NCBI GenBank assembly: GCA_030248225.1
Contig: JASANE010012258.1
Coordinates: forward strand, 1 to 64,000
DNA: 64,000 bases
Direction of reading: 5' to 3'
From: Trileptium ribeirensis
Taxonomy: Eukaryota > Nematoda > Enoplea > Enoplida > Thoracostomopsidae
Shown: positions 4,427-46,990 of the stretch, in pieces
Layout: each line of letters opens with the position of its first letter
Numbering within the stretch: the first letter of the stretch is position 1
The notes under the pieces: generated by a model
Seen by the model: only the letters and a program-made list of their open reading frames with translations
Database searches by the model: none
What the model was told of the DNA's origin: nothing
Program-made: the position numbers and the translations under genes

Positions 4427-7060
4427 CAGCGCTACGCTGTTGCACTGCACACTTTTAGACGCAAGGCCCATACAACCCCAACTATCGTAACCTCAAGTGC
4501 GGACTCAATTTTCTTGGTCGGTCCTAACAAGCTACGTAGCTTAACAAGCCGCGAGGGCTCTTCATAGGATGTGTTCTGATTGTGCCGCATGGGTGCGTGC
4601 TTAGTCTGCGTGGTACACATTTGAGTTCCCAGGAAAACTGGCTGTGTCAGCTGCTCACAGGCCAAACAGCTCATACTGCTATTCCCTATCTAGGATCCAC
4701 CTGGAAGTATCAATCGGGTTATATTTATGGTTAATCCGACCATCCCTAGACGCATAACGTCAGATTGTTATTGTTCCATGGGAATGGGTATTTGGCAGAT
4801 GGTCCCTTCAAAGCTTTGCCTTCGATGATAGGTCTTGGGAGTGTTAATATCGCACGAGTGGAATTTACACAGTAGAATCGGCGAACCATGCTAAGATTTG
4901 CGACCTGTTCGACGTCATGTCTGAACGCAGGTCGTCCACGAGGGCTCGACGATTTCAAACCCGTTAATACATATCGCTAAATATGGCATCAACAAACACA
5001 AGAACACATTGGGTTTTCAATTACTATTTATTCCTAAGGTAGTAGATTACACGTTCAAATAAGACAATACGGTCATACAATTCAGTTAGGCATACATTCA
5101 CAAAATACAATTTTTTTATTTCGCCAATAAAATTTTAATTGGAGCTGCTGGCATAAACCGGTGGCGGTCCTAATCCAAATGAAATTTGTTTGGGATTAAA
5201 CTAATTACTAATTAAAGCGTTCACTAATTTTAATGAGCGTGTCTGGCGAACCTCGATTTTTACTAACCTTTCCGGCTTCCCAGACCTTAGTCAGCAAAAT
5301 CGTCAATTTTCGCGACCATTTGCCTCATTTTCCAGACAGTTTAATTTCGCCAGCTTTGATCTTCCCAAAATGGCTCATCTTTTTCTCCCGAAATTAATCC
5401 TGATTTACGTAATTTTTATTAAATTAATAATTATTTTAATAATTTCAAATTATTATATTATCTGTCTAGATAAATGTCCCTATACATACATACTAAATTG
5501 TATTACTTCATTGTTTAATATTTGCTTAATCAATATATTAATATAAACAATCCGTATTATAATTAATTTGTACAATATTTACTTAGTGGGATATTAATAA
5601 ACTATATTTTAATATTAAATTTATAAATATATACACTCCAGATATATATGTGTAGTAGCAGTTTTCCCCCATGAAAGATTGAACTGAAAACTGGATTCGA
5701 AAAACCGGTTCCTGCATAAAGCGTTGAAGAAATTTGCACCTTGAAAATTAGCTTAAATGAAATTATATATATGCCTAATGGCTTACAGAAACATTGATTG
5801 TTCTGACATATATGTTGGTGTCATGTACGGCGTCATGCGACTCCGCTGAATCTACGCTGTTCGATATTTTAAGTTGTACACAGTTGTTTATTCTATTAAA
5901 CGGTTCTTTCTTGAATCTGGCGGTCCATTCGCAGCTCTTTGTGATTAACTTTAGCTTACGCCGTAAATTAATTCGCTTGTAAGGACATGTCATTCGTCCT
6001 CATATAGATATATGCTCATAAATATATTAGTTTGATTGTTTACTTAATTAATATATTAATAATATTTTAATATTAAATTTATATGTATCTTTTATAATCG
6101 TAGAGAGACATATTAACATATATATTTATACATGGGTGGACATCTGTTAGCGCAAGCAAAATGACGGAAAACAAACAATCACGGGAGTGGGGCACAAAAA
6201 GGCTCATAATCTTTTGATCACCTTCTGGGCAAGGTACGGGTCTTAGACTCGGTTCCTCTAGGTGATCATTTTGATACCCAACACCATCGGGTTCAGACCA
6301 GATAGGGAAAACTGGGCTCTCTGATGAGCCCATCGAAGGTAGGAAAATTGAAGGTTTCAAGGACTTCCGGCAGGCTGGCGTTACCTTTTTAGAACCAGAG
6401 AGTTATATTTTTGGATAGTGTTTAATAAGGGAACACAACGATGGGTCGCATGCCCGTTGGGAAAATTTTCAAGCGGATGCTATATCTAATGTGGGCACAG
6501 CGGGCTCTTGCCGAGCTCAAATTGAACACTAGAGTCCGGGGGACCTTTCCAATTGGGAATACACATTTCGAAGGTATTTACAATTATTTCTTGATAAGTC
6601 CGTGGGTTCTGATTAGATTAATACGAAGCTAGTCTCATTAGAAAGATCGAAGGATTTTGTACCAATAAATATGGCCTTCCCACGATTTCTCAACCGTCCC
6701 GGGGTTATGAACCGGAACCGTTATCCTCAATTCCGAAGAACTGGAATTGACAGTTTAAATTTTTCTTATCAGTTAAAATTTTCCAGTGAAAATAAACACT
6801 GGTAAATTGCTATTTCATTTTTTGTACTGCGTTTTCCAATGTCCACTAAGAAAATAAACATTGGCAAACTAATATTTCAACCTTTATGCTGTTTATTTCA
6901 AAAAAATTTGCCCATTTCCTGTTCGTTGCACGCCGAACAGCCACAATTCGGGACAATTTTCACGGGTAGGGGCGGTTGGGACTGGTTCTTCAAAATTGCA
7001 CGCCTTAAGCTATTGCAGCTACGATATTGCAAGAAAACAATATTTTATGATATTATGTTA
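4427..7060 (+). repeat. Structured repeat family (SR), copy a, shortened
   Basis: This begins near GCGCTACGCTGTTGCACTGC and follows the same order of landmarks as the longer SR copies: the AGGATGTGTTC block (about 4565-4580), CCCTAGACGCATAACGTC (about 4743), TTTCAAACCC (about 4950), a 'TTTATT' joint, an AT-rich middle (5400-6070), then GGGAGTGGGGCAC (about 6183), GGGCACAGCGGG (about 6494) and the hairpins at 6630-6649 and 6920-6939. It lacks the 21.3-22.9 kb type middle. There is no coding frame of note. Boundaries are approximate. Confidence 0.7.
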
Positions 7061-7258
7061 TTGTAAACCTAACGCAACAAATAGCAAAAGCTAAATTATT
7101 GCTGCTACAACAACGTTGGCTTTTATTGCACACTCGATAGCGGAAAAAATTATTGCCGCTACAATAATATTAGCTGGTGTTGTACAACCCCAGAACGGAC
7201 GAGTTATTGCTGCGTCAAAGGCAGCTAGTTGGTGTTGTAGCGACAATGTTCACTTGAG
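7005..7258 (+). repeat. TATTGCNGCTAC-rich low-order repeat
   Basis: Words of the type TATTGCAGCTAC, TATTGCTGCTAC, TATTGCCGCTAC and GGTGTTGTA recur every 20-60 nt, forming short foldbacks around TTGC. The array follows directly on SR copy a and runs into the 23-bp minisatellite. No function is recognised. Confidence 0.5.
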
Positions 7259-9454: not shown

Positions 9455-9860
9455 GTCTGAACACAATTTGGGCAAGCTAAGTATGATTCTAGTTTGGGTT
9501 AAACGCTCAGTGCTCAAAAATCCCATATTTCGTGCCTGGAAACCTTGATATGCTGTTATATACCTCCATCAGTGACTATAAAAATAATTTCGGCATATTA
9601 TGACTAACTGACCACTATTTCGGTTGGCTAATTACGATTCTATGCCCGTAAAATTGAGTTAACACTCTTCTGAGGGCACAAAATGCTTAAAAATCAATAT
9701 TCGTATCTAACGCCACCAGTATGATATATTTCCTTTAATGAATGTAGCAAGGTAATTTTTATTAGGGTGACTGTCTCAACACTATTTCAGAAGGCTAAGT
9801 GCTATTCTATATCTCTAATTGGGCTAAACGCCCTTTTCTAACTAAAATTGCAATATCTCC
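9455..9860 (+). repeat. Diverged tandem repeat, about 150-170 bp x 2.5
   Basis: Three blocks starting near 9466, 9616 and 9785 share the word order ATTTnGG..GGCTAA..ATTCTA..TTGGGnTAAACGC and end in a TATATTTC/ATCTCC-like stretch. It is in intron 1 and non-coding. Confidence 0.5.
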
Positions 9861-9949
9861 TATCTAGCACTCTTATATAATAGCAATATTTAAAAAAACC
9901 AGGTTTTCTTGTAGATAAATGTTTTTGTTTATACATGAATTTATTGTCA

Positions 9950-10012
9950 GTTAATGCATAAGAAATAATAAATGCATAAGAATGCATAAGAAATAATAAA
10001 TGCATAAGAAAA
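9950..10012 (+). repeat. Short tandem repeat of AATAAATGCATAAG
   Basis: Four or five overlapping copies of a 14-nt AATAAATGCATAAG word, some lacking AATAA, are visible. It is a simple microsatellite-like array in intron 1. Confidence 0.8.
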
Positions 10013-10399
10013 ATATAAAAAACACAACAGAAAATACTCTTTTAACGTGAATTGAAAAAAGGACCCCATGTAACCTTTGAAAACTAGTCTCATCGCATAA
10101 AATCATATTTGTAGAATTTTTTTGCGTTTGTTATAAAATGAAAAATACTTTTTCAATCTGAACAGTTGCATTTTACTCACTAAAATATGTCCACAAAAGA
10201 TGATGAATAATATATATAAGCGTTGCTTGGAGAACCCAGTGGTGTGTCTTTGTTATTCTTTTTCGCATCAAGCTGTACTCAGCCGTCTCGATTTTCAAGC
10301 GCGTAACAGGTATATTAGGAGATACTTTTATTTAGTGGACAAACCATTTTTTGCGCAATAATTAATTTAAAAGAGATACTAGCATAATGTTTGTTGCAG

Positions 10400-16164: not shown

Positions 16165-18115
16165 TGTGTAATAGACGGGACGCTGCTGCACTGTACAACT
16201 TTCAAACGAGCTTAGCAAGCCGCAGGAGCTCTCCACATGACGTGTTCAGTTCCCGCCGGTTGGTTGCGCACGTCGCTTGTACGTGGTGCTACCTTTGATG
16301 TTTCCAGGAGGTTGGCTCCGTCACCTGCTCGTAGGCCCAGGAGTCCATACCGGTATTTCCTGTTATGGTCTCACTTGGAAGTTTGCTTTATTGCTTCCAA
16401 AATACATCGTTGGGGTTGTTAGGAACAAATTTTATTAATTCTGTTGCCACTTTGGCCCCACTAGGGTCCAAAAATCCCTGCACGTTTAACGTCGGGTTGC
16501 TTTGCTCTATTCATTTACGAATTTCATGGGTGGTTCCCCGATTCTCAAGTATTTGACCCTAGGAACTTTCGCATTCTAATTCGTACCTATTTGTTGAGCG
16601 GCGAAACACGCTGAGGCTTGTAACCTTTCGACGATAAGCCTAAAAGCAGTTTATCTTTGGTGCGACGATTTCAAACCCCTTAAGACATATCGCTTGATCG
16701 GTCAACAGTCAACACAAGGACACAGGTAATCTTCATTGATCATTTATTGATAAGCAAATTCGTTACGTATTGGGCTACAGGCCGGTACAATATAATTAAT
16801 AGTATACACAATAGGATCGGTCGGCATGGACATAAAATATGATAATTGATAGATCAATCGGAGAACGAGCCTTAAACGAAGTACACACCTGTAAGTTATT
16901 TCGGAAACATCCGAATCTCGGTAATACTCGATCAAAGAGGTGCGCTTATCCTACTAGCAACGGGAAAATCGAGACGAACGCTAACGATACATATGGATTG
17001 ACATCGATATTCAAAATATCGCTCAAAGCCAATCGGACGGTTAAGGTAAGCGAAGGGTTTCCCTCGTGGGGTACGAAACCAGTTACCGGAAAACATGGAC
17101 GAGTGGCGTCTGGGCACGTCTATCAGTGGATAAGGGGGATAATAAAACGTCTTATGTCGGGCACGACAGAATTTCTTGCCTCAACGAGTCCTAATGTAAA
17201 TCTATCTGGCTAAAAAGCTAAATATGCCAAAGTCTATACTCAAGAAATTGAGAATAGATCGCAAACGACATAATAAATCAGCAATTCTGACTTTGACTAC
17301 TCTGATAATACACATGGGTACAATAGAACATGGTATGGTGTAACGCATTCCAAATAAGGTATGGTACGACAAAACGACATTGCGTATACAGCAAACGAAC
17401 AATAACGCGTGTGCACGTGATCCATGGTACGTGGCATTTAAAATTGCTTTAAAAATTAGATTACCTATTTTAATCCACAATCTAATTGTATCTATCATTG
17501 TAACCAAGATCTAGGCGAGTCGTTCCAAACTAAATTTGATATTCAGCGCGCAGCAAAATTCGGTCACTCGTTTAGATATTTACCCAGGGTCGGGGTTTTG
17601 TCTCAGTACACGGTAAATTTTAAACCCTAACGCTAAGCGGGCTCTTTTATCGCACTAGATTTAAGCTTATCCGATGGCCAGTTCATCGGGACATAGATAA
17701 CTGTTTAGACTAGCAGGGCATGCCATTTCAACAAGTCAATGAAGAAGGACAAGCATGGTGTTCCGGCTCGAGAGGGAAGGGAAAATGCGACGTAGATCAA
17801 CTGTCCACCGTTATTATTTTCACGGGGAACAAAAAATCGTATCGGTGACACCATCTTCGCTGAATATCTGTTAGCATGGCGTTGCTTAACGATTAAATGT
17901 ATACACATAATCTAGAAGTTTTCGGCTTAGGTTCAATGGTTGAACCCCTTTATTTCCACCGTTTTCACACTCTAAACTGCCGCAAACCAAAATGCGTGCT
18001 ATTCGGGGTCCTAAAGTACGTCGGAGGTGCCGGTAAAATTAATGGGGACCAATTTCCGACTTTTGTGATTCCCAGAAATTGACGTTTCTAAAACTTATGA
18101 AATTTTTTGTGTATG
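16165..18115 (+). repeat. SR family, copy b (5' part only)
   Basis: This starts GGGACGCTGCTGCACTG and carries the SR head landmarks GCAGGAGC, GTTGGTTGCGCACG, GTTGGCTCCGTCACCTGCTC, CACTAGGGTCC, TTTCAAACCCCTTAAGAC and TTTATTGATAAGC. It stops where copy c starts, so b and c are head-to-tail. A 124-codon open frame at 16839-17213 is not recognised and has no counterpart frame in copies c or f. Confidence 0.7.
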
Positions 18116-18119
18116 TAAC

Positions 18120-21100
18120 AACGTGACGCTGCTGCATTACGCACTTCCAAAACGTAATGCCCATACGACCCCGGCTATCGTAACATCTATGGCAAACCTA
18201 ATGTTTTCAAATTTTCTATTTCGGGTCGGTCTCGAAAGACTACGGAGCTTAGTTAGCCGCAGGAGCGCTTCACAGGATGTGTGCTTATCCTACCGGACGG
18301 TTTGCGTACGTAGCCTAAGCGGTACTACCTTTGAGGTCCCTAGGCAAGTTGGCTCCGTCACGTGCTCTCAGGCCAAAGAGACCATACCACTATTCTCTGT
18401 CCACCGGGAAGTGTGTTGAACATATGGATTGATTGATTTTCTACTTTCCTTAACGGTTAATTTATTTAGCCAGTGGCCCCCACTAGGGTCCGACAAATCA
18501 CTAGACGATTAACGTCGGATCGCATGTGGTTTCCTATTTTGGACGTTTAGTGAAAGCTTGTTTTCGGGTAAAAAGTTCTTTCTTACGTCGCACGAGTCGT
18601 ACTCACTCAATCACTAATAGTAATACAAATAGGAATCGGCTAGTCAAGCTAAGGTTTGCTTCTTCCGTGCGTGTGTAAAACCTGAACGTTCGTCGTCGAT
18701 AGGGGTAACGGATTTCAAACCCCTTCAATACGTATCGCTACCACTGGTCAGTAAAACGCATGGACACATTCGGGTTTTGATTGAGTATTTATTGATAAGC
18801 CAAAATCGTATGTATAGACATGAGTATATTGTACGGCAAAAGTACAATAGATACAATGCCAACGGAATAGTACGCTATTGGGAAAAATTGGACGGATAAC
18901 AAATGGGCTTGTCGGAGTCATCGCATTTTTCATGGGACTCCCAAAGTTGGTAAAAATCACGGCGTGAACTACTAGACCTTCCGAATGACAGCTACGCTTA
19001 CCGTACTCGAAAACGGGAAGAACAGTATGAAACATAATGCAATGGGGTCAGTTAGTTATCGAGGCGCCGATCGAGTAACTACGACTACTGGGGTACTCCG
19101 GTTAAACAGTAGGTTCAGGTAAGCTAAAGGCGACAAAACAACGGGTAAACCCAGATATGCGGGTCAAAGCGTACACAATAGGGATTTTGGGGTCTTGGTT
19201 TAGCTCATCCTAATCAACGGCTATGGTACACGATAGATGAATATTGATAAATTCGGTAAAACAAGAATAAATGGGTTAAGATACGGCAGGTTACAACAAA
19301 TCAACAAAGGTTACAATTGAACAATCAACATGGGGGCAATATAAGCAAAAGTACACGTTAACATGGGTGCAAGTTTGTGAATTCACGATGGATACAACTC
19401 CTAAATTCAAGTGCGACAATGGCGTAACTTTTCTTTCCTACACGCAAACGTATGTATGAACAGTAACCGCAGGTATAGCAAATTTTCCTTAGTACATGGT
19501 ACAACAGGCTAATCGTGATTCCAGGTTCCTATTATATTGTCCTTCAAATGTGGTAACAGAGATGCAGAATTTTGAGCTTAAATATATACTCATTTGCAAC
19601 CTAAGTATTCTCGGAAAGTGGACATTTTCTTGTACATGATAATGCGCCAGAATAGATTCACAATGGGCAGGATAAAATCTTTCCTGAGCTGCTTAGAGCT
19701 CCCGATAGAAAGAGATTGGGACCGAATTTTCTAACTTTTCAAACATTCCCAACACAAAATTTACAGCTAAAATTTAATATGTGTTGTGTACATTAATTGT
19801 ACTTTATCAACAGTAGGAATATTGATATTTTAATTTGACGGGCAAATTTGTACATTTTAAGAAGGTGCTGGATCGAGCCGGATCCGGGTAACAGTACTAA
19901 AATGTCAATTTTGAGCCTACTTGAGGTTCGCTCAGGACCTTTGTTCACGCTTGGCTCAGCGGAACAATGCTCTAATTTCTTACCAAACAGTACGGCTATA
20001 CCACAACTGATAAGGAAAAGAATCTCTAAATAACAACTCGGAAATACTAATTCGAGTACACCACGTCCTAAGATACGTCTATTCGATTCATTTGCAGCGT
20101 ATATTTATTTAGTCTATCAAAATGTTCCAAATGGGCTGTTCCTACACCTACGAAAGGGTCGGAGGCGTTGCCGCAGACTTAAATCTTCGCTGCTAATACG
20201 AGCGTATAAACATAGCTTGATGTTCACTAGTAATTCAACCAGAAGGTAATGCTCTAAAACTTTATGCGGGTCTAAGAGTTTATAAATGTATCAAGTACAA
20301 ATTTTATCATTCAACTTTTACAAAAAGGATCGTGATAATTGACGGTTCAGGTCGGAAAGACTATATTTATATACGGGACAACAAACGTTTGGTAAATTTC
20401 TTGATTCGTCCTATGTTAGATTTTCTAATCTTTATAATTAAATAGTTGCTTGATCCTTGATCGAAAACGAGAAACGCTACGCTTGGGCGTGCGAGTAGGC
20501 CACTGCCGAAGCATTGAACCGCTCTGGAGCTATTCCAAACTTCCAGAAGTTCAAATGGGCTAAAAGACCTAGCTTGCTTAACTAATTTCTCAACTAATTG
20601 AATGTCAACCTGATTTCTTGATGCGAAAGTTTTTTTACAATAGCGTCGGATCGCTCATCGTCGCTACGACGCAACGGTACTGATGTGGGGCAAGGGACGG
20701 GCTCAGTCGGCTCCCTAATTTACGATGCCACAAGCAAATGTTGTGCTTGTGTCAGGGGTAGTCTGTATAAGTTGTGTGGCTATACGGTACAATTGTGTAA
20801 GTTTGATGACAACTTCGGGGCATGGGGGCAGGGGTTAAAATTGTTTTCAGCTACCTAGAAATTTATTCGAGACTAAACCTATAAATGACAATGCCTTGCA
20901 AACCATCGCCATTACCCTAAAGATCCTTGAGCTCCTGTTATTTCAACTTAAAGATGGCTCTCGAAAAGAGCTTAGTTGCTACTAAAATTTTGTTAGTATT
21001 TCTCATGGTCCCTACTTATTAAAATAGGGCCGTAAACGGCAGAGCTGGTTGTCAGTGCAACCGTAACAGATTTACCTACCAAATTTCATTCGGTTCATGT

Positions 21101-25680: not shown

Positions 25681-26399
25681 ATGATTATCAAATCTGTTCC
25701 AAGTACATATATACACGAGGACGGGGAAGAGGCTTCGCGTTCCTGCAGCCATAGTCGCTGGGGATTCAGTTTCAGGAGAGATCAGTGACTCGAATTCGTA
25801 AAAGTTGTCCACTATCGTGTGGCCATTTATCTGCCTCGTAACTATCCAGCATGGATCTGTTACAAGTACAACTCTTGCTACAACTTGTGTACAACAGTTT
25901 CTAAACATGGGGGATTTGATGCTTCACTTTGCTCGTTTGTTATAATTGTTTATACACGCATTCGTGAAGCTGCAGGATCGGGTCGGATCCGGGGAAGTTT
26001 ACGTAAACGATCATAACTTATGTGTCGGAAGTCCCATGGTGTTCTCATAATAACGAATAACTCAACGGGTCAATTTAACGAGCCATCATTGCTACACTGT
26101 TGCACAACTCATGCTTTTATAAAAACTTACTTCTTTTCTCTACTCTTGTAAGATGGGTCACTGTCGTTATCGCCTAGCGAAGATACAACTCGAACCAAGA
26201 GGGTCTAATTCTTTCCCTAGATAACAGCTACCAATTGTTGGCCACTGGTCAGTTTAATATTTAACCCAAACCATCTACAGCTAATTATTGTTAAGTCAAT
26301 TACGACGAAGAAACGTGCTTCTCGCCGGAAGTGTGAATTTTTGAAGTTCGGCGCATTGCTCCTGTCATATCTATGGTTTGCGGGATTACATCCGGGGAC

Positions 26400-29300: not shown

Positions 29301-32300
29301 ACGCCATATTTTCTATTATAAATATGGCTTGTCTACTACTCCTGCATGTTCCCATACCCAAACTTACATGCCATCTCGTCGGTCGTCCAACCACCGTCCA
29401 TGCGCGATCATCCATACGAAAACGAAAACCGAAAATTAATACAACTAATTTAAGAAAGCATTGGAGCCGGACAGTATAGTCGTCCGAACTCCGCGCTGCC
29501 GAAGTCAAACTGAATTTTTCAAACTTAGTCGCGACGTCTAACCGTATTTTTTATTTTTAGTTTCCGGCCAATCGGAGACAATTTAATGAAACCAAGATTT
29601 CGATGTTTTCCTAATTCATCCATTAAAATTTTAATTTAGGACTGCAACCATAAACCGGTGGCGGTCCCAATCCAAAGGAAATTCCTTTGGTATTAAAGTA
29701 ATTAAAACGTTCGTTAATATTACTGAGCGTGTCTGGTGTCAGCCAATTTTTGGCAACCATCCCGGGACCCAGACCTAGTCATTAAAATTGTCAGTTTTCG
29801 CGGGCGAATTGCCCCAATTTTCCAGACAGTTTATGTTATTTCCCCAAAACCCAAGCTTTTTCCAACGTTTCTAATCAAAATTAATTCTCAATTATGTAAT
29901 AATTGTTATTTTATTATTAATTTTAATATTATTAAATGTTTACTTTATATATAAGTTATTAATACTAACTATAGGTTATTATATTTTTCGATTAAGATTT
30001 GGGCTAGACAGATATATAAATAATCGTATACCCACATTTGAAATTATTTTATTTCATTAGTTAATATGTACTTAATATATAAATAATCCGTATTAAATTA
30101 AATTCATAAATTAATAATTTAATTATGGACTGTTTACTAAAAATATATTAATAAACTTATACTTTAATATTAAATTTATAACAAATTATTATACAGATAT
30201 TTAAGTATATTTTCATAAAAATATATTATACAATTTTATTGTTTACTTAGTTAATTGAATTCGAGTGGAATGAGCGAGCGAAGCGATCTTATTCCACTCG
30301 CGATCGAAGCGAGTGAGTGGAACGAGAATTTTCAATTTTGGCTCTGGCGGAGGGGTAAGGAGGTCATGTCTGTGTGTGTCTGTCGCACCTGGATTTCGAT
30401 AACGGTTGGGCTGATTTTCATGCAAGTAGTTCATTCGAACCGCAATGGTCGATTTAGGTGTAGTGACGGAGTCCGATTTTTGACTTTTTTCCCGTGGGAA
30501 AAGTTATGGGGCAAAATGACGTCATTTTGGCCCATTTTCGGGCACTCCCTCCAGTTTTTGCGACTTTTCTCAATAAGTAAACGAGGTATCCGTAAACTAA
30601 TAGGCCTATTCCGTGTAGCTTTACCAGCGCTTTTCAATGATATTTAACAAGTTTTTCAACTACTTCCCAATCTGGAGTCTATAAGCTTATAGTTGGCGCC
30701 AAATTTCATATTTGGTGAAAAGTCGTGGGAAATGTACCTAAATGTGTGTTTTTTTGTTACTTTTAGTGTCTTATATGTGGTTTTATGAGCCAACAAACTC
30801 ATTGCGAGTGTCAAAAATATTGTGTGGCAAATATTTTTCACACTTCTGCTTCATACTTGGTATGAAAAATGAGATTTTCTCAAGTGTCGGTTTGAATTCT
30901 TTAACGTTCTTTTCACGGTCAATTTAGGGTTTTATTGAATTATTAAATTGTTAGTTCATTGTTTTTGTACTCGTTGTATGATGTTTTGTCTACTGCATAC
31001 GTTGGCTATCAAAAGAGGCAGGCGTAACTATGACTCATCACTCACGGTTTATATAATGCTGCACCTGCGTACTGTGTGTAGGCTTTGTTGGTGTGAGCTT
31101 TCTACAACAGACTGACTAGGGGATTGTTCTCACCACTCGAATTCTGGCTCGCAAGCGAGCTTCACTAGTATATTAATAACAAATTTTAATGCTAAATTTA
31201 TAAGTTAACTAACTATATTTGCTTAATAAATATATTAATAAACAATATTTTAATATTAAATTGATAAATAAATTACTTTAATTAATAAATATATTAATAA
31301 TACCTTATACTAACGTATGTGTATTTATTTATAGTCGTAGACAGAAATATAAACATATATATTTTTATATAGATGGGCAGTCGTCTACGCAAACTAAACG
31401 AGGAAAACAAACAAACACGGGAGTGGGACACGAAAAAAGGACTCACAGTCTTTATCCAGGGGATAATTGAGGTACGAAGTTCGGATTCGGCTCTTCCAGC
31501 CTATCATTTTAACACCCAATACCATAAGGACTAGAGCAAGAATCGGAAACCGAGCTCGCAAGCGAGCCCATTCAGGTTTACGATAATAAAATCAAAGGAT
31601 TTATGAGCGTCCAACGGGATGGGGTTATCTTGGAAGAGCCAGAGAATTATATTTTTCGATCGGGTTTAATGAGGAAAACACAAAGATACATTACTATCGG
31701 CAAAATTTTCACAAATTTCCCGGGGGTACTGTACCCAAAGTAGGCACAGCGCGATCTTACCGGGCTCGGGGAAACCTCGCTATAATTATATTTATAACTA
31801 TATATATTATTAAAATAACTATTTCTAATTCGACCAATTATCCCTTTATAAATCCGAGGAATCTGATCAGATTTACCTGAAGCCGATCTCATTGGAAAGA
31901 TCGAAAATTTTTATACCAGAAAAGTATGCTCTCTAACAATTTCGCAACCGTTCCGCAGTTATGGGCCGGAATATTAATGACCCTCATTCTCGAGGATTCG
32001 GATTTGACATTAAAAAACTCTACTTATGTGTTCAAGTTTTCCTGTGTCCACAGCGAAAATGAACACTGGTAAAACGATATTTTAACTTTTATACTAATAA
32101 TTTCCAGACTGTTCGCTTTACGGCGCACAGCCACAACTCAGTAAACTTTTTCACGGATAGGAGCTGTTGGGATGCGTTCTTTTAAATGCCAATTTTTTGT
32201 ACTTTCACTGCTTTACCTCACTCAACCGTATCGCGCGTGGTCGTACCGTATTTTTATAAACGGGACGGGTTAATAAACCGCAAAATTTAAGCACATTTCG

Positions 32301-33000
32301 GGTTAGGGAATGGTAAGGTATCCCGAAACACCGGCTATATATATATACACAGACCGATATTCACAATAAACTATTCATAATTAATACGGTTGGTGTTGAT
32401 ATAAATATATAGCAAATAAGAATGGTAGGTCAGGACCGATAAGGTACCAAGAGGTATCCTACCAAACCCTGCCGACCAGCATCACCTTGGTTATACATAA
32501 AATTATCGATATATATACGAGCAAAAAAGTCATGCGGGTTTCGCATTGCCAATATAAATAACAATGACCATGAATTTACGAACAGATGATGCAATAAAGG
32601 TACAAATGGAATACGACAATGAAGGTACAAGTCGAGCAGTATATACATTAGATAATTGCAAACATACTCGATCAATGTTTCATGCAACAATGGGTAACAT
32701 GAATTAATACAACGGCAAACCATACAATTATGGTAACAATAAATCGTACAATTAAATATATAATTATGGTAACAATGAATCTTACAATAAAGTATGCGGT
32801 AATGGTAACAATGAACCATGCCACTATGAATACAAATATGCTAACATTAAATCCCCCAATTACAACAATTTCTCATATTATAATAATTATTTATCATACA
32901 CACACAATTTAATTCATACAGGTATAACTTGGTCAAAGTAGCAACAGATCATGTGTTTACAATATATAAACGATGTCAAATTCGTGGTTACAATTACACT
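26400..33000 (+). repeat. SR family, copy d (interrupted)
   Basis: The head is at about 26415 (GTAACAGCGCCGTTAGGCTG), with CACAGGATGTATTC, the CCTAGACGC block (26754), TTTCAAACTACTTTG and TTTATTGATAAGC. The middle landmarks at 28.7-29.5 kb include CTCCGCGCTGCCGAAGTCA (29489). The CCGGTGGCGGTCC block (29656) is shared with copy a (5158). The AT-rich middle is 29.88-30.24 kb. The unit is then broken by a DNA-transposon-like element (30257-31169) and resumes at about 31170 with GGGAGTGGGACACG, GTAGGCACAGCG and the hairpins at 31884-31903 and 32110-32129. Confidence 0.65.
30257..31169 (+). mobile_element. DNA-transposon-like non-autonomous element, copy 1
   Basis: The ends form a 12-bp inverted repeat: GAATTCGAGTGG at 30257 and CCACTCGAATTC at 31133-31144. 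A further shared tail, TGGCTCGCAAGCGAGCTTC, reaches about 31169. The left end carries nested palindromes (GAGCGAGCGAAGCGATC, GATCGAAGCGAGTGAG). Internal landmarks are shared with the copy at 54266-55034: TCGCACCTGGAT, TGACGTCATTTT, AACGAGGTATCCG, AAGTCGTGGGAAAT and GTGTGGCAAATATTTTTCAC. No transposase was found. It interrupts SR copy d. I could not fix a target-site duplication. Confidence 0.7.
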
Positions 33001-33649
33001 TCCAATTTTTCTCAAGTTCTTGTGCATGCACATACACCCGCTCGGGGAAGGGGCACTTTAATTTTATTCAAAATCATTTATTTTATTGCTAATTCCTATA
33101 CAACACATTACCTTTCTGATCAAATATGTTGCCCATTACTCTTTACTCAGGATCAATCTGTCTCGTAACGATCCAAAATTCCTCTTTTACATACGTACCC
33201 AGCGTAACATTGTTTGCAATCCTAACATCTCAATACATAAATCTAAATGCAATTATTTCTTACCAGCACTAACATATCTCATATATATGTCCAACATTCA
33301 CCTTCAAAATATTGCTGATTTTTGCCGTGGCCCAAAGACAAGATTAAAATGTATATTTTAAGATAGAATATTACTTTGAATTCCCCTATCCTAATCTATT
33401 CAAACCTACTTCCTATTTTTCAATTCATTAATTCCAACCCTACATACCAGCATCGCAATTAAAAATTCATTTTTCCTTTTGATCATCGTTATCATCATCC
33501 CGTGATGGTACCGTGACATCCTCCTTTTAGGCAGGTACATAGAAGTATAATTATAGTGTATGTATATATCTATGTATGTGTGTAAGCATTTAAATGTGTA
33601 ATTTAGAGATAGTAATGATAAAGTACTATTTGATATAAAATATTACAAT

Positions 33650-34900
33650 CCGGTTCTATGATGGGAACACAACAATGAATCGCATGCCCATCGGGGTACT
33701 ACTGTACGCAACGTTGACACAGCGGGTTCGTGGGTTCAAATTAAACCGTATAAGGATGGCATTATTAGTTTTTACTAAGATTAATATCGTACATTAATTA
33801 ATACCCAAATTCCACCCATCTAAACCACCCCAGTTCCCTAAATTGAGTAAAGGTTCGGTTATTTCTTAATAAATTCGTGTACTTTGATCAGATTCCAACG
33901 GACCGTTCTCATCGGAAAGACCGAAAAGTGCTACGCCGAAAAATTGCGGCCCGTACCTAAAAATTCTCAGCCGTTCGGAAGTTATTGCCGGTAACAGCGA
34001 AGACCCTTTAATTATTACTCTCATTATAGTAAATTTGGTAATTTATGAACTCTACATAAAATTTTCTAGTTTTATCAAAATTTTCTGTTCGCTGCACGGC
34101 GGACAGCCGAAACTCATTTTACCTCTCGGAGTTTTGACGGTTGGGATGGGTTGCTTAGATTCTACCTTTCGCAAATTTTCCTGAAGCATGTCCTAGATTT
34201 TACTAAATTAGTGCCACGTACCATAATTTCCGCAAAGAGCACGCACAGCTGGCTGGATCCGGTAAAATACGCTGAGGTATCGCACCAGACCTAACCGGCT
34301 AGGAAATACAGCCACTATAAATAGCACAACAATGTTGTCATGTAGGTTTCACATGTCCAAAATATGACACAATAATAGTCATTAAATTGGACAACACTTA
34401 GCATATGATAGTACGACGTTCCAGACCTAACATTTCATGCGTATATAATTCCGACAGTTACAGCTATGAATTCGATACTCATTATACGGTTATACACACT
34501 GATATGTATGAATGGCACCTTATTTGCAACATAACATCATACCCACGATTCATGTAGCATGCGATACAAGCAGTACAATGGGTAATCATGTACGATAATA
34601 TTAATGATCAATTATTTAACAGTACAGCAACAGAATCATAATCATGCTTAACGTTATCGGTGTAATGACGCGAAATCAGTACTATCACATGTCATATGAT
34701 TCATGAACTACACAGCAATAAAGATGTAAGCACATGCGATAACGATCATGAAATGTTATACATCTAGTAATCAAGAAATATTGCACGAATGACAGTGTAA
34801 TCGTGTACAATAGTAGACACATGATTATACAGCAAAAGGTCGATGATCAACATGCACTATAACACGATAACAGTATATAATAATATATAATCGGACACAG
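33650..34900 (+). repeat. SR family, copy e (3' part only)
   Basis: Only the late SR landmarks are present: GAATCGCATGCCCATCGGGG (33676), TGACACAGCGGG (about 33715), hairpin 33904-33923, hairpin 34086-34105, GACGGTTGGGATGGGTT (34137), then an AT-rich tail with repeated ATGATACGA/TACAATGG-like words. It is on the same strand as all other copies. Confidence 0.6.
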
Positions 34901-35069
34901 GCGCACGATCGGGATTTTTGTTTGTTGCTAATGTTGCGGCAACTGCGGTCAATGTGGATTCTGTCACTGGTTCCAATTCTCGTCATGACTCAATACAAGT
35001 GTGGTATTGTTTCCTGACACTAAAATTTTTGCTCAGAGTGTTTAACATAGTTTTAATATTTTATTATAG

Positions 35070-38347: not shown

Positions 38348-38539
<192 letters not shown>

Positions 38540-40164
38540 TGATTTTGCACTTTTTTGCTGCAAAGTTTCGACGCGGCACCACAACGATATTATCCTGTAG
38601 TTGCTTTTAGCTGCGCATCTTTGATTTGCTGTATAAATAAATTATTGTTATGAGCTCGGATCCACAGTTTGCATCATATTTTGATAGGCTAATATAACTT
38701 AAAATCCAGTGACAAATGTTATACTTCAGTTGTTCATTCATCCGACACACAGTAGATTTGTAACGTTATTGAAACCGAAAGAAAAAGGTTTAAGTATTTT
38801 TAATTATATATATCATGCTTGCTCTTATAAAATTCGAAACCTTGACTATATGTACTTTTATCACTTGAAATTTAACTCCTGAAAACAATATCACAGCAAG
38901 CATAGACAATAAAATAGCAGGGCATTCGCAAATCGTAATGCTTCGCCGTTATATATAGTAATACTATTATCTCGCAATCGAGGATGAAATGGGGCGAGCG
39001 TGGTTTCATCTAGCAATAATTTTTGTGTAATTATTTGTAACAGGCTTTGTATTTGATGTATATACTACACTAAAACCTCTATAACCCTGAGCCCATTGAA
39101 AATCATAAAACCATAAATCTTAAACGCATCGAAAATAACTGAAAACACACAAAGTATTCGTGCTAGTCTATGGATAAATGAACCATCGTATCCAGCTTAC
39201 TTATAAACCAATACGGGTCATTTCACGAAACCATGTACTTTTGAAACACCCGTCTTTGAAGCCAAAATGCAACGTTTTCGACTGTACAGTGTCTAGACCC
39301 CTGCCGACGTAAAAAATCATGAATTTTTCGTATGCAAAAATAGCTACCTGAAACCTGCTACAGGGGTCGCAAAGGGTCCAACTGGGGGTCAAATCTTAAT
39401 CTGAAAAGTCATTATTCTGTAGGTTGACGCAGTGGCACGTGAACCATAATCTGTTTGTATGCAAGTCGGAGCAAAATGGTCGCCGTCAAGCCATTTGGAG
39501 GACTTGCGACCTAAAATTGGTGCCGCTAGGGCCCTTTTGGGGTTAAAAATCGACCAATCCTGTTGCAGAAGTTTTTCTAGCGCAACGAGACAGCACCTAC
39601 ACATACCATTTTATGCACACAAACCAACCATGAGTGGGGGATATCCGACAAGAACTTTCAGGCAGATCCTTAGGCCTTGTAAAAAATGCCCCCCCCCCGA
39701 AAGGTTGAGTCGGGGGAGGCTACACCTCAGGTCGGGGGAATACAGCTTCCTACAATATACAACACGTGAAACGTTAATTACTTCTAAAGATTCTACATTT
39801 GGTTTAATACGCTGCTGGTGTAAAACAAACACAATTGATCTATGATTAGCATACATTTAGGTGATGATACCAAGGAAAATGCGCGCAATAGACGTAGGGG
39901 CAGTCAGAAGGGTTCTGTAGCTGGCCAGTTACCCGCACGGCTGAATATCACGGTGCAATGATGATGAACTTATATACTAATATGGTTCTTGCGACCTTCG
40001 GTTTCGCTTACTATACATGTCGTCCGGGGGGCTACATTTTCATTAAAAAATTTTAATACAAAAATCGATTGTAGTGAGACGTTACTATGTTTCCATTCGG
40101 CCTATTGTAAGACTGTATGCTAGATTTGGATTTTTAATTTATATTTTAATTTATTAATTTTTGT

Positions 40165-43100
40165 GTAATAAAATCGACGTGACGCTGCTGCATTGCGCAC
40201 TTCCAACGCAATGCCCATACGACCCCGACTATCGTGACTTCGAGGGCGCACCTGATGGGTTTCCATTGCTCGAATTTCCTTCCCCACGCGAGTCAGGCCC
40301 AAGAAATGACGGAGCTTAGCAAGTCGCAGGAGCGCTTCACAGGATGTGTTCTGATCCTTCCGGACGGGTTGCGCACGTAGTCTACGAGGTACTACTTTTG
40401 AGGTCCCCAGGGAGGTTGGCTCCGTCTCCTGCTCACAGGCCAAAGAGACCAAACCGCTATTCCCTATCCACGTTTAACCCGGGAAGTGTAAAATTTTGAA
40501 TACTTACGCTTGATCGAAATTGGTTCGTACTTCTTCGAAATGACTCCTCCATTTAATTTAGCCAGTGGCCCCCACTAGGGTCCGACAAATCCCTAGACGT
40601 TTAACGTCGATCCGTGCGTGTCTATGTTTCCTATTTTGGGTGCTCAGCGTGAGTTTACAATTTTTTCTGTATGTGAGTCGCACCAGTCGTACCTGTACAA
40701 CAATCATCATTAACAAACTTAGTTGTAATCGGCGAGTCACGCTGAGGTTTGCTTCTTCGATGCGCGTGTCAAACCTGAACGTGGGTCGTCGATTTGGGGT
40801 GACGGATTTCAAACCCCTTCAGTTCCTATCGCTACTACGGGTCAACAAAACACTTGCACAAATTGGGTTTTCAGTGAGCATTTATTGATGAGTTGCACAA
40901 GAACTTATGGGTACACAGACAGTTACATATTGTACGGGCGAACACAATAAGCGTTATGTCACAATTAAGGTACGCTAATACAAAATGAGCAGCGTTTCAA
41001 TTGGGGAGGGTTGCGGAGTCATCGCCTTTTTCACTGAACTCTCACAGCTGGGTCAAATCACGGCATATACTGTGAAGCCTTATCTTATGACAGCTGTGCT
41101 TACCTTACTCATGAAAAAATAGTGGGTCAAATTAAAATCAGTACCGGTAGGTGCCACGGTTAGTTGTCGATAAAATAAAGGCGCCATCGAACTAACTATT
41201 TACTCGGTACTATGTTTGCTAACGGGAAGGGTACTCCGACACAACGATAGGTTCAGGTAAGCGAAAGGCGGGAACGAAGCGGGGTATGCGGGGTTGAGCG
41301 TACTTACGAGACGCTTGCAAGACTTCATCTGGCTCATTCGAATCACAAAAGTATGGTACATGATAATCGGTTATTTATACTCGCAGTTAGTAGCGATGAG
41401 GTTAGTCTATGACAACATGATACAACAATGCTTGATGATACCATGACAAGATTATGAAATGCTCCTCGGTACGACTCCTACATTCTTTTGTACAGGTGCG
41501 ACAACGGTACGATATTAATTTTGTCCTACTCGCATACATACATACGTACTTGGAATGACCATATAAAATTCGTTATGCTGACTAATTTCGGTGCTTATTC
41601 TTTATGCAAAATCCCTGATATAGGTCACTACAAAAGACAGACATTTCAAATACACTGACGTGAGTTATAACAACATGGAAAGGGACGATCGGACGGACTT
41701 GTCTTTCAAACAGCTTGCGGGTCCCGGTAGACTGAAGTTGGGACCGAATTTCGAGCTTTTCCTAATCTAGATTAGTTGCCAAAAATCAATGTGAGCGTGG
41801 TCCTTGGCTCATTATATGATCCAAACATTCGTCCTGGGTTGGATTAATTATTGCCGGACAGTGGCAGTGCGAGATCACTATACAAATTTATGTCCACTTT
41901 GAAGCGTACAGGCAGAGTTAAAAACCGTGTCGCGGTACCTATGAAGTTTCATTAAAACGAGTACTATTGGCGACGAGGACTCGCAGGTCCTCGGTACAGT
42001 TCTAGAGGTGCTAAAACTTGAGTTAATTTTTTTGACTTGAAGAATTCTCAAAACAAGCTATATTCGGCACTAAATTTTAATTATTACTTCGGGCAATTAC
42101 TACTCGACCGAAAGAGTCGGTAGACGGAGGCCCCGGTTGTCGGGACAACCGTAACCATTTTGCTAACTGAAATTCTCTCCGTACGCGTCTTCAATTTGCT
42201 TGAGTTCCTAGTTTTCGGTTGAAATTTGAGCTTAAATTCCGTAGGGGCTGGAGAAAACCTACGATTCTCCGTATCTTCCTAAATTACCAGCCTTTCTCTA
42301 CGAACTTCTGCAGGGAAGCTGGGTTTGACCTCTTACATCGATTTCCTAGGACCGGGTCAACGGTCCTCACAAAAATGGTCGGTCGGGTCGGGACCCGACA
42401 GACTCGACATCGCGTCTAGCGATATCGTCAATTCTAGTACTCAAAAATGGTTGCCACAACTAGCAAATTTATCAACTCTGGTAAATTTGATATTTCTTTT
42501 ACGGTGGCAGCATATAAGAATTTCGCGACTGCGATGCAGTCGTGCTGCCTTGATGTCACTACACAGAGCAAGAGGGCTACAAAGCTGAACTGTACTAATG
42601 AAATGTACTAAAACTAAACTACAATCTGACTATAAACGTGCTTATACAAGAGAGAAAGTCTGACAATTCTGTGCAAAAAGCTGAGCGGCTTTTGCGCTGC
42701 TCGGGTTCGAAATTTTTATAACTTTAGAACCAGCCACGGCTTGGCCGGGCTCAGTAGCTCAAATGGAAGGCCTAGCGGGCCTCTATTTGTACTGTAAAAA
42801 TCATCGAAATTCCTGGAGGGGATTTTAAGTTGTAACTAAATGAAGTTTTAGGCGTGGGCGGACCCCTATCGGGCCGTCGGGTTTGTGATTCCAACCCGAT
42901 AATGTTGGGTTTCAGAGCGGTATCCAATAGCGGACGTTCCTACGAAGAAACAGCGAAAGTTTCGGCTAAATTCCTGGGGCGGATCTTGAAATATTTTAGT
43001 TTTACTCTGGATTTTACATTTTGGTGGGGCAAGGCCTCTTCGAGGTCGTCGGGTTTAGGGTTCCGACTCGAAACTGACATGTTTTAGAATCCTATTCGTT

Positions 43101-46100
43101 GAAAGACAGTACTATGAAGAAACTGCCAAGGTTTCAGTGAAATTCCTGAAAGAGAACTTAAGTTATTTGAATTCCCGCGTTTTGGTGGGCGCGATCCCTT
43201 TCAGGGTCGTCGGGCTTAAGTTTCTGACGTGGTATTTGAACGCTTTAAATATTGAATCTATAGTTCGGATCCTCCGAGAGAACCGGGTAGAATTTTAACA
43301 AATTTGCTGGGGTAATTCCTGAAATGCGCCAACTTTCTACCTAGGTGAGCTGTCTCACTCACGGAGCATTGGATCACTACGCCTATTTAAGTTCCAACAC
43401 GATATTTTAGCAGGCGGACATTGCCTATAGCACAATTGTCTTATAAATAAGGCTTACACGGGTTCCTAGCATAAATCGATGCAAAATATTAGTGAATTCC
43501 TAGTAACAAAGCCAAAAACGAAAGGACGAACTCTCGTCCAAAGAAACCATAAAACGCATAAAATCTTGAAAACGAACTTTGGTAAGTCCTACCTAAGACG
43601 CTCATGTGCGTGTATGACCGTGGATGATTCGGAGTACTAATCGAAACGTCTTGTTTAACCAAAATGCTTTCATGTAAAAGGTTTGTTTAACCTCGGTCAG
43701 CTCAAGGAAAATTTTCCTAACTCCTAACTCGACTCAGGGAATCGTGTAAAATTAATCGCAACGCGAGTGTCGCGCTTATTTGTGCCCTAACTCACCGACC
43801 GAGGGAGGTCCAGTACGACTTCGGCTATCTAATTAAATGAGGCGATCGGCTAACCACGACTACGTGCCTGCGGGACAAGCTAGGACGGACGGAACTATCA
43901 TGTAAACCGACGTATGGACAGGGAGTCCATGGAGACTTGTGCTTACGATTGTTCGATACAGACTGCTCGGGCCTAACTTAAATAACTCTAACCAACGTTG
44001 ACTCTAACCGAGGCTTAACCTAAGCCTCCCAGTCCATACTTACGTAGGGCGATCCTTTGACTCGGCGTCCATCGCGGGTGTCCATTCCATCGCAGAAGCA
44101 TAAAAGCGTAAAGAAACAAGCCGTACCATCGCGAATAACCAGTGAAGTAAAATCAAGACATTACTAAAGCGACAGAGCCGGTCTGCAAAACGACCGAACT
44201 CTGCGCTGCCGCAGTCGTACTGAACTCTAGAGACTTTGTGCGTCTCTGCTTTTATATGAAATTTGAAAATATTTGAAATTTTGAATTTTGGGTCCGTTAG
44301 AGTGCTTATTCCGCACTTTTCTGGAAATCTGACCCCAATTTTAGGCTTTATTGTAAATATTGTTACCGGAACGAATTCCGATCATATTTGAAAAATTTTA
44401 TGTCTAAAATTTGTATAAATTTTATATAAAAAAAGGATTTACGACCTCAAAGTTGATATAAAACTTTAATAAACTTATACCAAGCCTAACCAAAACTAAA
44501 TTAAACTACCAAACACTGTTACTCGACACGTGAGTAAATGCCGGTACTGCACATTGCTTCAAACGTTCCGAATGTTTCTACGTGAGACTGGTGTCAGCTC
44601 GACACTGGGTCGTTTATATTATTTTAATATAGAGCTGACTGCTTCAATATTAACTTCATAGCAAACGGGAGGGGGTCGAATTTACTTACTCAAAGCAGCA
44701 AAGTTCGGTACTCGGAGGCAAATAGAAACAGCAATCCCCACACAAAACTGTACAAATTCATACAGACTTCATATCAGCGCTTACTGGACACGATCGGAGA
44801 TGTACTACGTTGCATTCCTAATATAAAGCTGTATAATGTTGTGTCGATTTTATATCGAACCCTGCTGATAAGAGCATTGTCCTTATATAAATTCTATATT
44901 AAATTTATATAAACTTCAAGTCGGCCGATGTTTACTTAAAGAATTGATGTCCTTCAATAAAATGTGCAAGTTCCAGCTTATAGACGACTACTTCCATACT
45001 CAGCCGCTTTTAAGTGCATCAGTACATCAATAGACCACTCAAATTAAGTTTCCCTATTAACTTAATATCAAATTCATTGTTTACTTTAATGGAAACATCA
45101 CTTGTATATCGAAAGTACGCCCTTATACGAGTTTATACATATATATGTGGCCAGTGTTCGTGTGAAGGAAACGTAGCTTGTGTAAACAAAACAAAAGAAA
45201 GCAAGCGCAAAGGGTAAAAAGAGGGTGGGGGTTCCTGGGGAATGGCCAGAGTGCCAAAAGAGTCTCGGACACGGACTCAGCCAGTCCGTCCGAGCAAAAC
45301 AATATGTAACAGGACCGTATTCGGTCCACAGGGGGAATAGACTCTTGGGGGAGGGTCCATGCCAAATTTTTCTCCGGGTAGGGTGTTTTAAACGGTTCCC
45401 CTGGGCACGGGGTATAGTTTTCTGGGGTGTTCTATATATATTTGGGGCAGTCTTGACAAAGGGATTCTAATGAGGGGTTATACGCCGGTCGTGGCGTTAT
45501 TTCTAAAATTTTCGTATGAGCGGGTATTTAAAAGTGGGCACAGCGGGACCGGTACGGGCTCAAAATAAAGCCGGTGTTTTGGGGAACCCAATGATACCCT
45601 ATATATAATTTTATGTTTAATATCCGTTGAGTTATTTAGATAATTGTATTTTACTGGCTTACATACTTACATATTTGCTCCTAAGTCCGTGGATCCGGGT
45701 CGGATCTCCACGAAACCGGTCTCTTTCGAAAGACCGTAAAATTTCCTATAAAGAAATGTTGAGTACGAAATTTTGGAGTTCCCAACGGTTCCGGAGTTAT
45801 GGGCCGGAGCAGATGCTTTTAACACCAAATTTTCCTAAATTTCTAAGTTTTACTTCTTATCACATCCAGCGAGATTGAACGCTGGTAAATAATATTTCAT
45901 TTATCATCACAAATTACCAGTGTGCTTTTAAGACTTCAACACTGGTAAACTTGATAACCGGCGGTTTCACTTAAAAATTTCGGAAAATTTGCTCGTTTGC
46001 TGTTCGCTTTCGAGCGAGCAGCCATATTTTTGTGGTCCTCATTCGTGAGGACGGTCGTGACGGGTCTCCGTCACGGCCAGCTATTCCAACGACAATCTGT

Positions 46101-46990
46101 AACTCGTTTCGAGGTCCTACCATTCGGGGTAGGGCAATTCCTACGTAGATGCTTATTCTGGGTTCAGCGAGGGAATCGTACCGTCCTAAAATTCTCGACA
46201 AATCGTGTATGGCAAGGGCTCGCCATACTCACATTCTGCTCCTATAAAATACCAGTTTGCTTGCGTAAAATCCCTAAAATTCCTCCTAAAATTATCCCAA
46301 ATAACTTAAAAGTTACAACAATACAACAAGGTATGACAAACATGGTACATAAAGTCATGGTAAAATGCAGGCGCTTTTATGCCCTGATCAATCAAATAAA
46401 ATAGTACAATTGTAGCACAACATTATCATGAAACGGTATACAATGACATCAATAGGGCGGCGCTTTTATGGCCTCTTATAATTACAAAGAGCGGTATGAA
46501 TACAGTACAGCAAATATATACACATATATCTGGTTAACAATTCATGTCCCAGTCAGTTTGCTGGATTTGTGCCTGAAAATATGTATGAGCAACAACATCG
46601 ATTCTAACGGTACACAATTATATGATACGATCCTGATAATAGACATTGAACACGTGCCTTTATGGCCATCCAAAGTATAACAATAACAATGATAATGATA
46701 CGTAAGTCAAATATATATATCAATGATGCCTTTATGGCCAACGATACCATAGAAAATTCATGACATTGCCAATGTTTTCCAAGGCGTGCGTTTCGGGCAC
46801 TACAAGCGATATGTATATAGATGGATATAGATATTTGTATATATACGGCAACAATTCCCTGACGATTATCCATCCCTAAAATATTAATAACGATACCCAT
46901 CTTGATCAAAACAATGTCGGCGGCGCAGGCCGAAATACTGAAAATACGAGTCGGTTACATAGCGGGACTCCTTGAACCTAATTATTCCGG
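40165..46990 (+). repeat. SR family, copy f (long, about 6.8 kb)
   Basis: This is colinear with copy c over its whole length: CGTGACGCTGCTGCATTGCG head (40180), CACTAGGGTCCGACAAATCC (40573), TTTCAAACCCCTTCAG, TTTATTGATGAG, the GAGCGGC..GCTGCTC hairpin (42687-42708), RRVCDS frame (42854-43087), GTGAGCTGTCTCACTC (43344), ACCGAGGGAGG (43798), AT-rich middle (44.25-45.1 kb), hairpins 45717-45736, 46001-46020, 46035-46052 and 46056-46075, GCCTTTATGGCC words, and GTCGGCGGCGCAGGCCG (about 46915) at the end. Overall similarity to copy c is moderate, but the hairpins are nearly intact. Confidence 0.8.

What the first reader, a model, noticed from the sequence alone, without database searches (positions are those of the whole stretch)
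4427..46990. Unrecognised large repeat family with conserved hairpins (SR), at least six copies
Copies at 4.4-7.1, 16.2-18.1, 18.1-25.7, 26.4-33.0, 33.7-34.9 and 40.2-47.0 kb share an ordered set of landmarks over up to about 7 kb. There is no transposase, polymerase or integrase motif, almost no coding frame, no terminal repeat that I could find, and a series of short hairpins that survive better than the sequence between them. It fits no standard TE class that I can name.
Basis: partly seen in the sequence, partly recalled or inferred. Interest (0 to 1): 0.8.

Follow-up and report, generated by a model that had tools for sequence, protein, structure and literature searches.

The report
Giant solo LTRs of gypsy retrotransposon
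The puzzling 7-8 kb non-coding, hairpin-rich repeats are the unusually long end repeats (LTRs) of a giant 33-36 kb gypsy-type retrotransposon, left behind as solo LTRs and read here on the strand opposite to the element's genes.

Summary
The repeat is real, and it has a class. The copies are giant long terminal repeats (LTRs) of a Ty3/gypsy-type retrotransposon, standing as solo LTRs and read on the antisense strand. Ends are TGTAA[C/T]A...TGTTACA (TTTTACA in D). Copies C, D and F have both ends (7,751, 6,777 with a nested insertion, 7,592 bp) and 4-bp target-site duplications matching at 10 of 12 bases. C is nested inside B. The same genome holds full-length elements. C18499:9412-45472 (36,061 bp) has two copies, 96.3% identical over 459 nt, exact outer duplication ATAT, and reverse transcriptase and integrase pieces between them on the opposite strand. 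C3737:80936-114296 (33,361 bp) has exact duplication CTTA. Four of four candidate elements share one internal end before the 3' LTR. 844 places match the LTR start and 78 match it joined to that internal end (the second pattern misses two of the four), so the family is probably mostly solo. Hairpins are about 8-fold enriched in C and F; covariation is suggestive in one of three alignments. Interest lies in LTR length (7.5-7.8 kb) and structure.

The parts
40164..47755 (-).
   Evidence: Ends; TSD TTTG/TTTG 4 of 4; other genome places listed are 88-94% identical, 30 of 41 listed rows (self included) beginning at query base 17 (=40164) or later
40160..40163 (.). 4-bp target-site duplication of F, left copy (TTTG); right copy 47756-47759
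18114..25864 (-). Copy C: complete solo LTR, 7,751 bp, nested inside copy B; TSD TGTA/AGTA (3 of 4)
26415..33191 (-). Copy D: solo LTR with both ends (last seven bases TTTTACA), 6,777 bp including a nested ~0.9-kb unrelated insertion; TSD TACC/TACG (3 of 4)
30255..31165 (.). Unrelated repeat inserted in D (copy at 54272-55034, 90.7% identical over its main 567-bp alignment)
16167..18113 (-). Copy B, first part: older LTR copy into which C inserted
   Evidence: End at 16167; joined flanks of C align continuously to the element (468 vs null 284, sd 21)
25865..26414 (-). Copy B, continuation after C
   Evidence: On C the right flank aligns from element offset 1670 where the left flank ends at 1677; the right flank alone is not placed significantly on D or F
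33640..34152 (-). Copy E: fragment of the sense-5' part of an LTR, probably the rest of B beyond D (not shown)
4422..7010 (-). Copy A: LTR lacking its sense-5' end and inner parts, closest to D
40190..40214 (-). Conserved hairpin near the LTR sense-3' end (U5 side) in F
   Evidence: both-side changes at 2 of 8 pairs (3 cells) in six copies, covariation score reached by 7 of 500 shuffles
40881..40886 (-). AATAAA polyadenylation-signal-like motif, 723 nt from the LTR end in F; kept in A, B, C, D, F at 582-723 nt
47468..47658 (-). 45-bp tandem repeat array in the U3-side part of F
   Evidence: related repeats in copy G
47730..47754 (-). Terminal hairpin GTAACGATCC/GGATC-GTTAC at the LTR sense-5' end of F
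   Evidence: fold; 844 genome matches to the terminal 29 bases with up to 3 mismatches

Best explanation
Each SR copy is a long terminal repeat, about 7.5-7.8 kb, of a giant (33-36 kb) Ty3/gypsy-type LTR retrotransposon. C, D and F in the window are solo LTRs: a full element inserted, made a 4-bp target-site duplication, and later lost its internal region (18-21 kb in the two elements measured) and one LTR by recombination between its two LTRs. SR as written is antisense: in the sense direction the LTR starts TGTAACAGATCCATACGGATC and ends ...ATATTACA; TAAGTGGGGG[T/C]CACGCC (primer-binding-site-like) follows the 5' LTR, and a purine-rich AAAAATTAAGAGA-like end precedes the 3' LTR. Shown: ends, duplications, paired LTRs, a shared internal end, RT and integrase pieces between one pair, nesting of C in B, abundance, conserved AATAAA. 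Inferred: solo formation by LTR-LTR recombination; that most of the LTR lies in the R region, present at both ends of the RNA, and that the hairpins act there in the transcript (packaging, strand transfer or polyadenylation); the primer-binding role. The hairpins outlasted the rest because they were selected in active source elements; after insertion the copies decay.
For: Termini TGTAAYA at 5 window starts and TGTTACA (TTTTACA in D) at 3 window ends, plus sampled loci. 4-bp TSD 10 of 12 bases at the three copies with both ends, while 3-bp and 5-bp readings give 3 of 9 and 3 of 15; about 5e-5 of random triples do as well. Genome search: 3,006 first-look candidates, 40 scored. C18499: copies at 9412-17158 and 37954-45472, inner flanks unlike each other, outer flanks ATAT/ATAT, 442 of 459 identical to each other at one end and 120 of 123 at the other, about 90% to F at the first end. 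Between them on the opposite strand RVT_1 1.6e-17 and rve 2.7e-8. C3737: outer CTTA/CTTA, 33,361 bp. The internal end ...TTTTCCCTTAAAAA-TTAAGAGA before the 3' LTR is shared, with small differences, by 4 of 4 candidate pairs, the sequence after the 5' LTR by 2 of 2 captured. 844 LTR starts against 78 LTR starts joined to the internal end, both reversed-pattern controls 0. Sense-strand AATAAA in 5 of 5 copies at 582-723 nt from the LTR end, a motif described for animal Metaviridae LTRs (passages of PMC3601003).
Against: RT and integrase were sampled in one element only (C18499); a nested foreign gypsy there is not excluded, and a weak, below-cut-off integrase zinc-finger match at 23.0 kb, downstream of the integrase core, hints at a second or rearranged pol. 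For C4648 and C2918 the outer duplication was not captured, and in C4648 an open frame, not an LTR end, was found where the 5' LTR should end. The junction pattern misses C3737 and C4648, two of the four pairs, so the solo share is uncertain. Nothing shows that the hairpins work as RNA: one-sided G-U and A-C changes are about equal between C and F (13 vs 10, 19 vs 19), and two of three covariation tests were not above shuffles.
Confidence: 0.87

Rival explanations
1. The window copies are LTRs, but of a non-autonomous giant element (LARD-like), with the RT and integrase of C18499 belonging to a nested foreign element.
For: pol seen in one element only; a second weak integrase match there; pieces at 19.0, 29.0, 31.0, 33.0 and 35.0 kb, scanned on the sense strand in one frame each, gave no convincing Pfam match; pieces at 21.0 and 37.5 kb were not scanned.
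Against: pol strand agrees with the strand predicted by the primer-site-like and purine-rich sequences; spacing between LTR starts is similar in four pairs, 24.3-28.3 kb.
Confidence: 0.1
2. A non-autonomous cut-and-paste DNA transposon moved by a gypsy-like integrase (Ginger-type), 7.6 kb and non-coding.
For: TGTNR-type termini and 4-bp duplications are shared with Ginger elements (passages of PMC2836005).
Against: Terminal inverted repeat is 7-8 bp, not 40 bp or more. Paired copies enclose pol with one outer duplication and a shared inner end, which a solo DNA transposon does not explain.
Confidence: 0.02
3. A tandem or segmental duplication, or a lncRNA gene cluster, with conserved RNA hairpins.
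For: All six window stretches are on one strand; hairpin enrichment.
Against: Copies lie across the genome on both strands (453 and 391 ends; copies G and H reversed on this contig), have target-site duplications, and C is nested in B.
Confidence: 0.01

Closest known systems
Burro giant gypsy-like LTR retrotransposons of planarians (passages of review PMC6431247, and of PMC11410931)
   Same: Gypsy-type, total length above 30 kb, high copy number, animal genome
   Different: Burro internal region is up to 25 kb; here the internal region is 18.3 and 20.8 kb in the two elements measured, and the LTRs 7.5-7.8 kb. No sequence comparison with Burro was possible; the species of the window is not known to me.
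Ogre Ty3/gypsy elements of plants (passages of the same review)
   Same: Giant element whose size owes much to very long LTRs
   Different: Ogre LTRs 1.9-6.5 kb, total 16-25 kb; plants. The LTRs here are longer and hairpin-rich.
LARDs (large retrotransposon derivatives; recalled, not read)
   Same: Long non-coding LTR-type elements with conserved RNA structure
   Different: LARDs have an LTR pair around a non-coding interior; here the window copies are single LTRs, and one full element holds pol pieces.
Ginger DNA transposons (passages of PMC2836005)
   Same: TGTNR termini, 4-bp TSD
   Different: Ginger has TIRs of about 40-270 bp and no LTR pair.

Membership tests
LTR retrotransposon, solo LTR | TG...CA termini with short inverted repeat | tested here: met
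   TGTAAYA...TGTTACA, TTTTACA in D
LTR retrotransposon, solo LTR | Short target-site duplication of fixed length | tested here: met
   4 bp, 10 of 12 bases over C, D, F; ATAT and CTTA exact around two full elements
LTR retrotransposon | Full elements with two near-identical direct LTRs around an internal region | tested here: met
   C18499 442 of 459 and 120 of 123 identical at the two ends; C3737 by ends and TSD, its LTRs not compared with each other
LTR retrotransposon | Primer-binding site after the 5' LTR and purine tract before the 3' LTR | tested here: inconclusive
   Shared TAAGTGGGGG[T/C]CACGCC (2 of 2 captured) and AAAAATTAAGAGA-like end (4 of 4) in place; complementarity to a tRNA not tested; similarity of TGGGGG to a proline-tRNA primer site is recalled
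Ty3/gypsy (Metaviridae) | RT followed by integrase in the sense direction | tested here: met
   RVT_1 at 27.0 kb then rve at 25.0 kb, sense = minus, in C18499; one element only, nesting not excluded
Ty3/gypsy (Metaviridae) | Phylogenetic placement of RT | not tested
   Only a 111-residue piece held; RT pattern judged gypsy-like by eye
Burro | Sequence relation to Burro pol and accessory domains | not testable with these tools
   No Burro sequence at hand; the pieces at 29.0 and 35.0 kb had no Pfam match in the frame scanned
Ginger | TIR of about 40 bp or more | tested here: not met
   7-8 bp only (yardstick)

The most novel reading that the evidence does not exclude
Possibly the longest LTR of an animal element described so far, 7.5-7.8 kb, in which most of the length is a transcribed, non-coding R region packed with selected hairpins: an RNA leader and trailer of several kilobases carried at both ends of the genomic RNA and serving packaging or strand transfer of a 30-kb-class retroelement.
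Probability: 0.25. Interest if true: 0.7.

Novelty: new member of a known kind. Interest (0 to 1): 0.42.

Why it matters
It turns an apparently class-less repeat into a defined one and shows how giant LTRs can escape recognition: solo, antisense, non-coding and very long. In the window such LTRs make up about 26,800 of 64,000 bases. An LTR of 7.5-7.8 kb lies above the 1.9-6.5 kb given for Ogre in the review passages seen, so it is a good place to ask what an extremely long, structured LTR does for a 30-kb-class retroelement, whose RNA must be packaged and copied across its whole length.

Tried and rejected
Rejected: protein-coding repeat (no Pfam match in the nine frames scanned with stops as X: three plus frames of C, three minus frames of F, three plus frames of D; no period-3 pattern); structural RNA family (one sub-threshold MIR396 match outside the repeats) or tRNAs; a TIR beyond 8 bp or a direct terminal repeat inside C, F, A, D (nothing convincing, one weak hit in D at E 0.005); Ginger (TIR length); a lncRNA or tandem gene cluster (dispersal, TSDs). 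A splice-donor-like CAGGTAAG near offset 1000 of C and F was dropped: it lies on the strand antisense to the element and may be one arm of a stem. L004/L038, first taken for an SR end, did not align to the SR end (z 0.5) and were dropped. The nested position of D in the same old copy as C could not be shown. Literature queries on conserved-hairpin repeat families and giant LTRs gave no description of an LTR this long in the titles, abstract starts or passages seen; that is not proof that none is in print.

Full report
What was checked. The window is from an animal genome: two NSUN2-like exons lie on the plus strand at about 35.07 and 38.4 kb (the gene name is recalled from its motifs). Its assembly has 687 Mb in 20,229 contigs, and the window is bases 1-64000 of an 89,476-base contig. 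Self-comparison confirmed six repeat-bearing stretches on one strand. None gave a Pfam match in the nine frames scanned (C and D plus strand, F minus strand). There was no period-3 pattern between C and F (summed chi-square 39 against 62 expected over 31 runs). The only Rfam row up to E 1 was a sub-threshold match elsewhere.

Hairpins. With stems of at least 7 bp and 3 GC pairs, C holds 11 against 1.3 +/- 1.0 in locally shuffled sequence and F 12 against 1.4 +/- 1.3; A holds 4 (0.6) and D 4 (1.1), one of D's being in its nested insertion; B 1 (0.5) and E 0 (0.4) are not enriched; three background stretches hold 0, 3 and 1. Between C and F, pairs of shorter stems (at least 5 bp) stay unchanged in 117 of 175 cells going from C and 139 of 230 going from F (40 and 17 more cells fell in gaps). 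Identity alone (64.6%) would give about 42%, but this compares stems with the whole copy, not with equally conserved surroundings. Covariation was tested on three alignments I chose. A hairpin near the LTR end had both-side changes at 2 of 8 pairs (3 cells) in six copies; its covariation score was reached by 7 of 500 shuffles, its number of changed pairs by 42 of 500. In the two others one pair each had a both-side change, and the covariation score was reached by 140 and 431 of 500 shuffles. One-sided G-U and A-C changes were about equal (13 vs 10 and 19 vs 19), so no strand of action can be read from these old copies. Structure is therefore real as enrichment and only suggestive as covariation.

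Ends. Twenty 10-kb and twenty 3-kb samples of the genome gave further copies. Three of them (L009, L010, L013) share one end abutting different flanks, which fixed that boundary as TGTAATA. The other end is CTCGTAACGATCCGTATGGATCTGTTACA or a near variant. F is 40164-47755, C 18114-25864, D 26415-33191. Their flanks match at 4 bp: TTTG/TTTG, TGTA/AGTA, TACC/TACG, 10 of 12 bases, against 3 of 9 for 3 bp and 3 of 15 for 5 bp; random triples do as well in about 5e-5 of 200,000 trials, not corrected for the choice of 4 bp. A, B, E and the reversed copies G and H lack an end that I could see and were not in this count. Joining the flanks of C gives a sequence that aligns without a break to the element (468 against 284, sd 21, on C; 445 against 280, sd 20, on D; no clear signal on F, 284 against 270, sd 14). 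The right flank alone is placed correctly on C (z 4.2) but not on D or F. So C sits inside B. The same test for D gave nothing on C, D or F.

Full elements. The genome search answered once for the first 970 bases of F: 3,006 first-look candidates, 40 scored, other places 88-94% identical; 30 of 41 listed rows start at query base 17 (position 40164) or later, 11 before it, the self match included. One contig, C18499, had two copies on one strand. Their ends were fetched: 9412-17158 and 37954-45472. They are 442 of 459 identical to each other at one end and 120 of 123 at the other, and about 90% to F at the first end. The outer flanks are ATAT and ATAT, and the inner flanks are unlike. Ten pieces of 450-461 bases of the interior were taken. 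Plus-strand frames of three of them gave no Pfam match. On the minus strand the piece at 27.0 kb matched RVT_1 (1.6e-17), the one at 25.0 kb rve (2.7e-8), and the one at 23.0 kb Integrase_H2C2 weakly (0.018, below cut-off). Five further pieces, one frame each, had nothing convincing (best: DapB_N 0.086 and Bac_globin 0.17, both below cut-off), and two (L049, L057) were not scanned. So the coding sense is opposite to the strand on which the repeats were first read.

Three more pairs stood out among the first 100 listed of 844 matches to the LTR start: C2918, C3737 and C4648, spaced 24.3-26.1 kb. Of the seven contigs with two listed places, three more have opposite strands, and one same-strand pair, C5726, is only 6.7 kb apart and was not followed. 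In sense orientation all four pairs, C18499 included, have the same internal end before the 3' LTR...TTTTCCCTTAAAAA(A)TTAAGAGA or a near variant. The two captured 5' LTR ends (C18499, C2918) are followed by TAAGTGGGGG[T/C]CACGCC. C3737 has outer CTTA/CTTA and spans 33,361 bp with one LTR of 7,655 bp; the 5' LTR of C2918 is 7,806 bp. My windows missed the outer 3' ends of C2918 and C4648 and the 5' LTR ends of C4648 and C3737. At the expected 5' LTR end in C4648 there is an open frame instead, with no Pfam match, so that LTR is probably shortened.

Solo or paired. 844 places match the LTR start and 78 match the LTR start joined to the internal end, each with up to 3 mismatches and both with 0 in the reversed control. 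The 78 include C18499 and C2918 but not C3737 and C4648, whose junctions differ by small changes, so the true number is higher, perhaps twofold. Broken contigs lose pairs too. Even doubled, and counting two LTRs per element, it leaves more than half of the 844 unexplained by full elements, which fits a family that is mostly solo LTRs. The ratio is a guide only.

Anatomy in sense direction. TGTAACA start with a terminal hairpin; 45-bp tandem repeats near the start (F; related repeats in G); long hairpin-bearing middle; AATAAA 582-723 nt before the LTR end in 5 of 5 copies (A, B, C, D, F); a conserved block of about 600-700 nt ending in T[A/G]TTACA. Animal Metaviridae LTRs are described with short inverted ends and an AATAAA motif, and conservation in long R regions is linked there to stem-loops (passages of PMC3601003). 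If transcription starts in the first third of the LTR, R would be several kilobases long. That step is inference; no transcript data were available.

Comparison. A review gives Ogre LTRs of 1.9-6.5 kb and Burro elements above 30 kb (passages of PMC6431247); [quoted passage not shown] The element here belongs to the giant gypsy-type kind by TSD, paired LTRs and RT-integrase order. Its relation to Burro was not testable. The six LTR stretches in the window are antisense to the NSUN2 exons, which fits the known tolerance of introns for antisense LTRs (recalled); copies G and H further along the contig lie the other way round, and so few placements prove nothing.

Noticed in passing
window 49813-53535: Another, shorter gypsy-type element: 172-bp terminal repeats 91.9% identical, broken RVT_1 and RNase H frames. 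Its terminal sequence differs from the giant LTR.
   Followed up: partly
window 1-809 and 2674-3470: Inverted repeat of about 810 bp, 91.6% identical, around a ~1.9-kb middle: looks like a foldback or long-TIR element.
   Followed up: no
window 30255-31165 and 54272-55034: Dispersed ~0.9-kb repeat, one copy nested in LTR copy D.
   Followed up: no
window 56908-58176: Tandem array of ~172-bp units, about 72% alike.
   Followed up: no
window 48089-48418: 161-bp sequence duplicated in tandem, 97% identical.
   Followed up: no
L049 (C18499:21000-21449): GC-rich (53%) minisatellite-like piece, open over most of its length in several frames on both strands, inside the internal region of the full-length giant element.
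   Followed up: no
L053 (C18499:29000-29449): Sense-strand open frame with a hydrophobic, membrane-anchor-like stretch lying upstream of the reverse transcriptase; an env-like region before pol is reported for Burro (passages), but no Pfam match was found here.
   Followed up: partly
L004:387-449 and L038:1-63: A different repeat whose end also reads hairpin plus CTGTTACA, shared at 95% over 63 bases by two contigs.
   Followed up: partly
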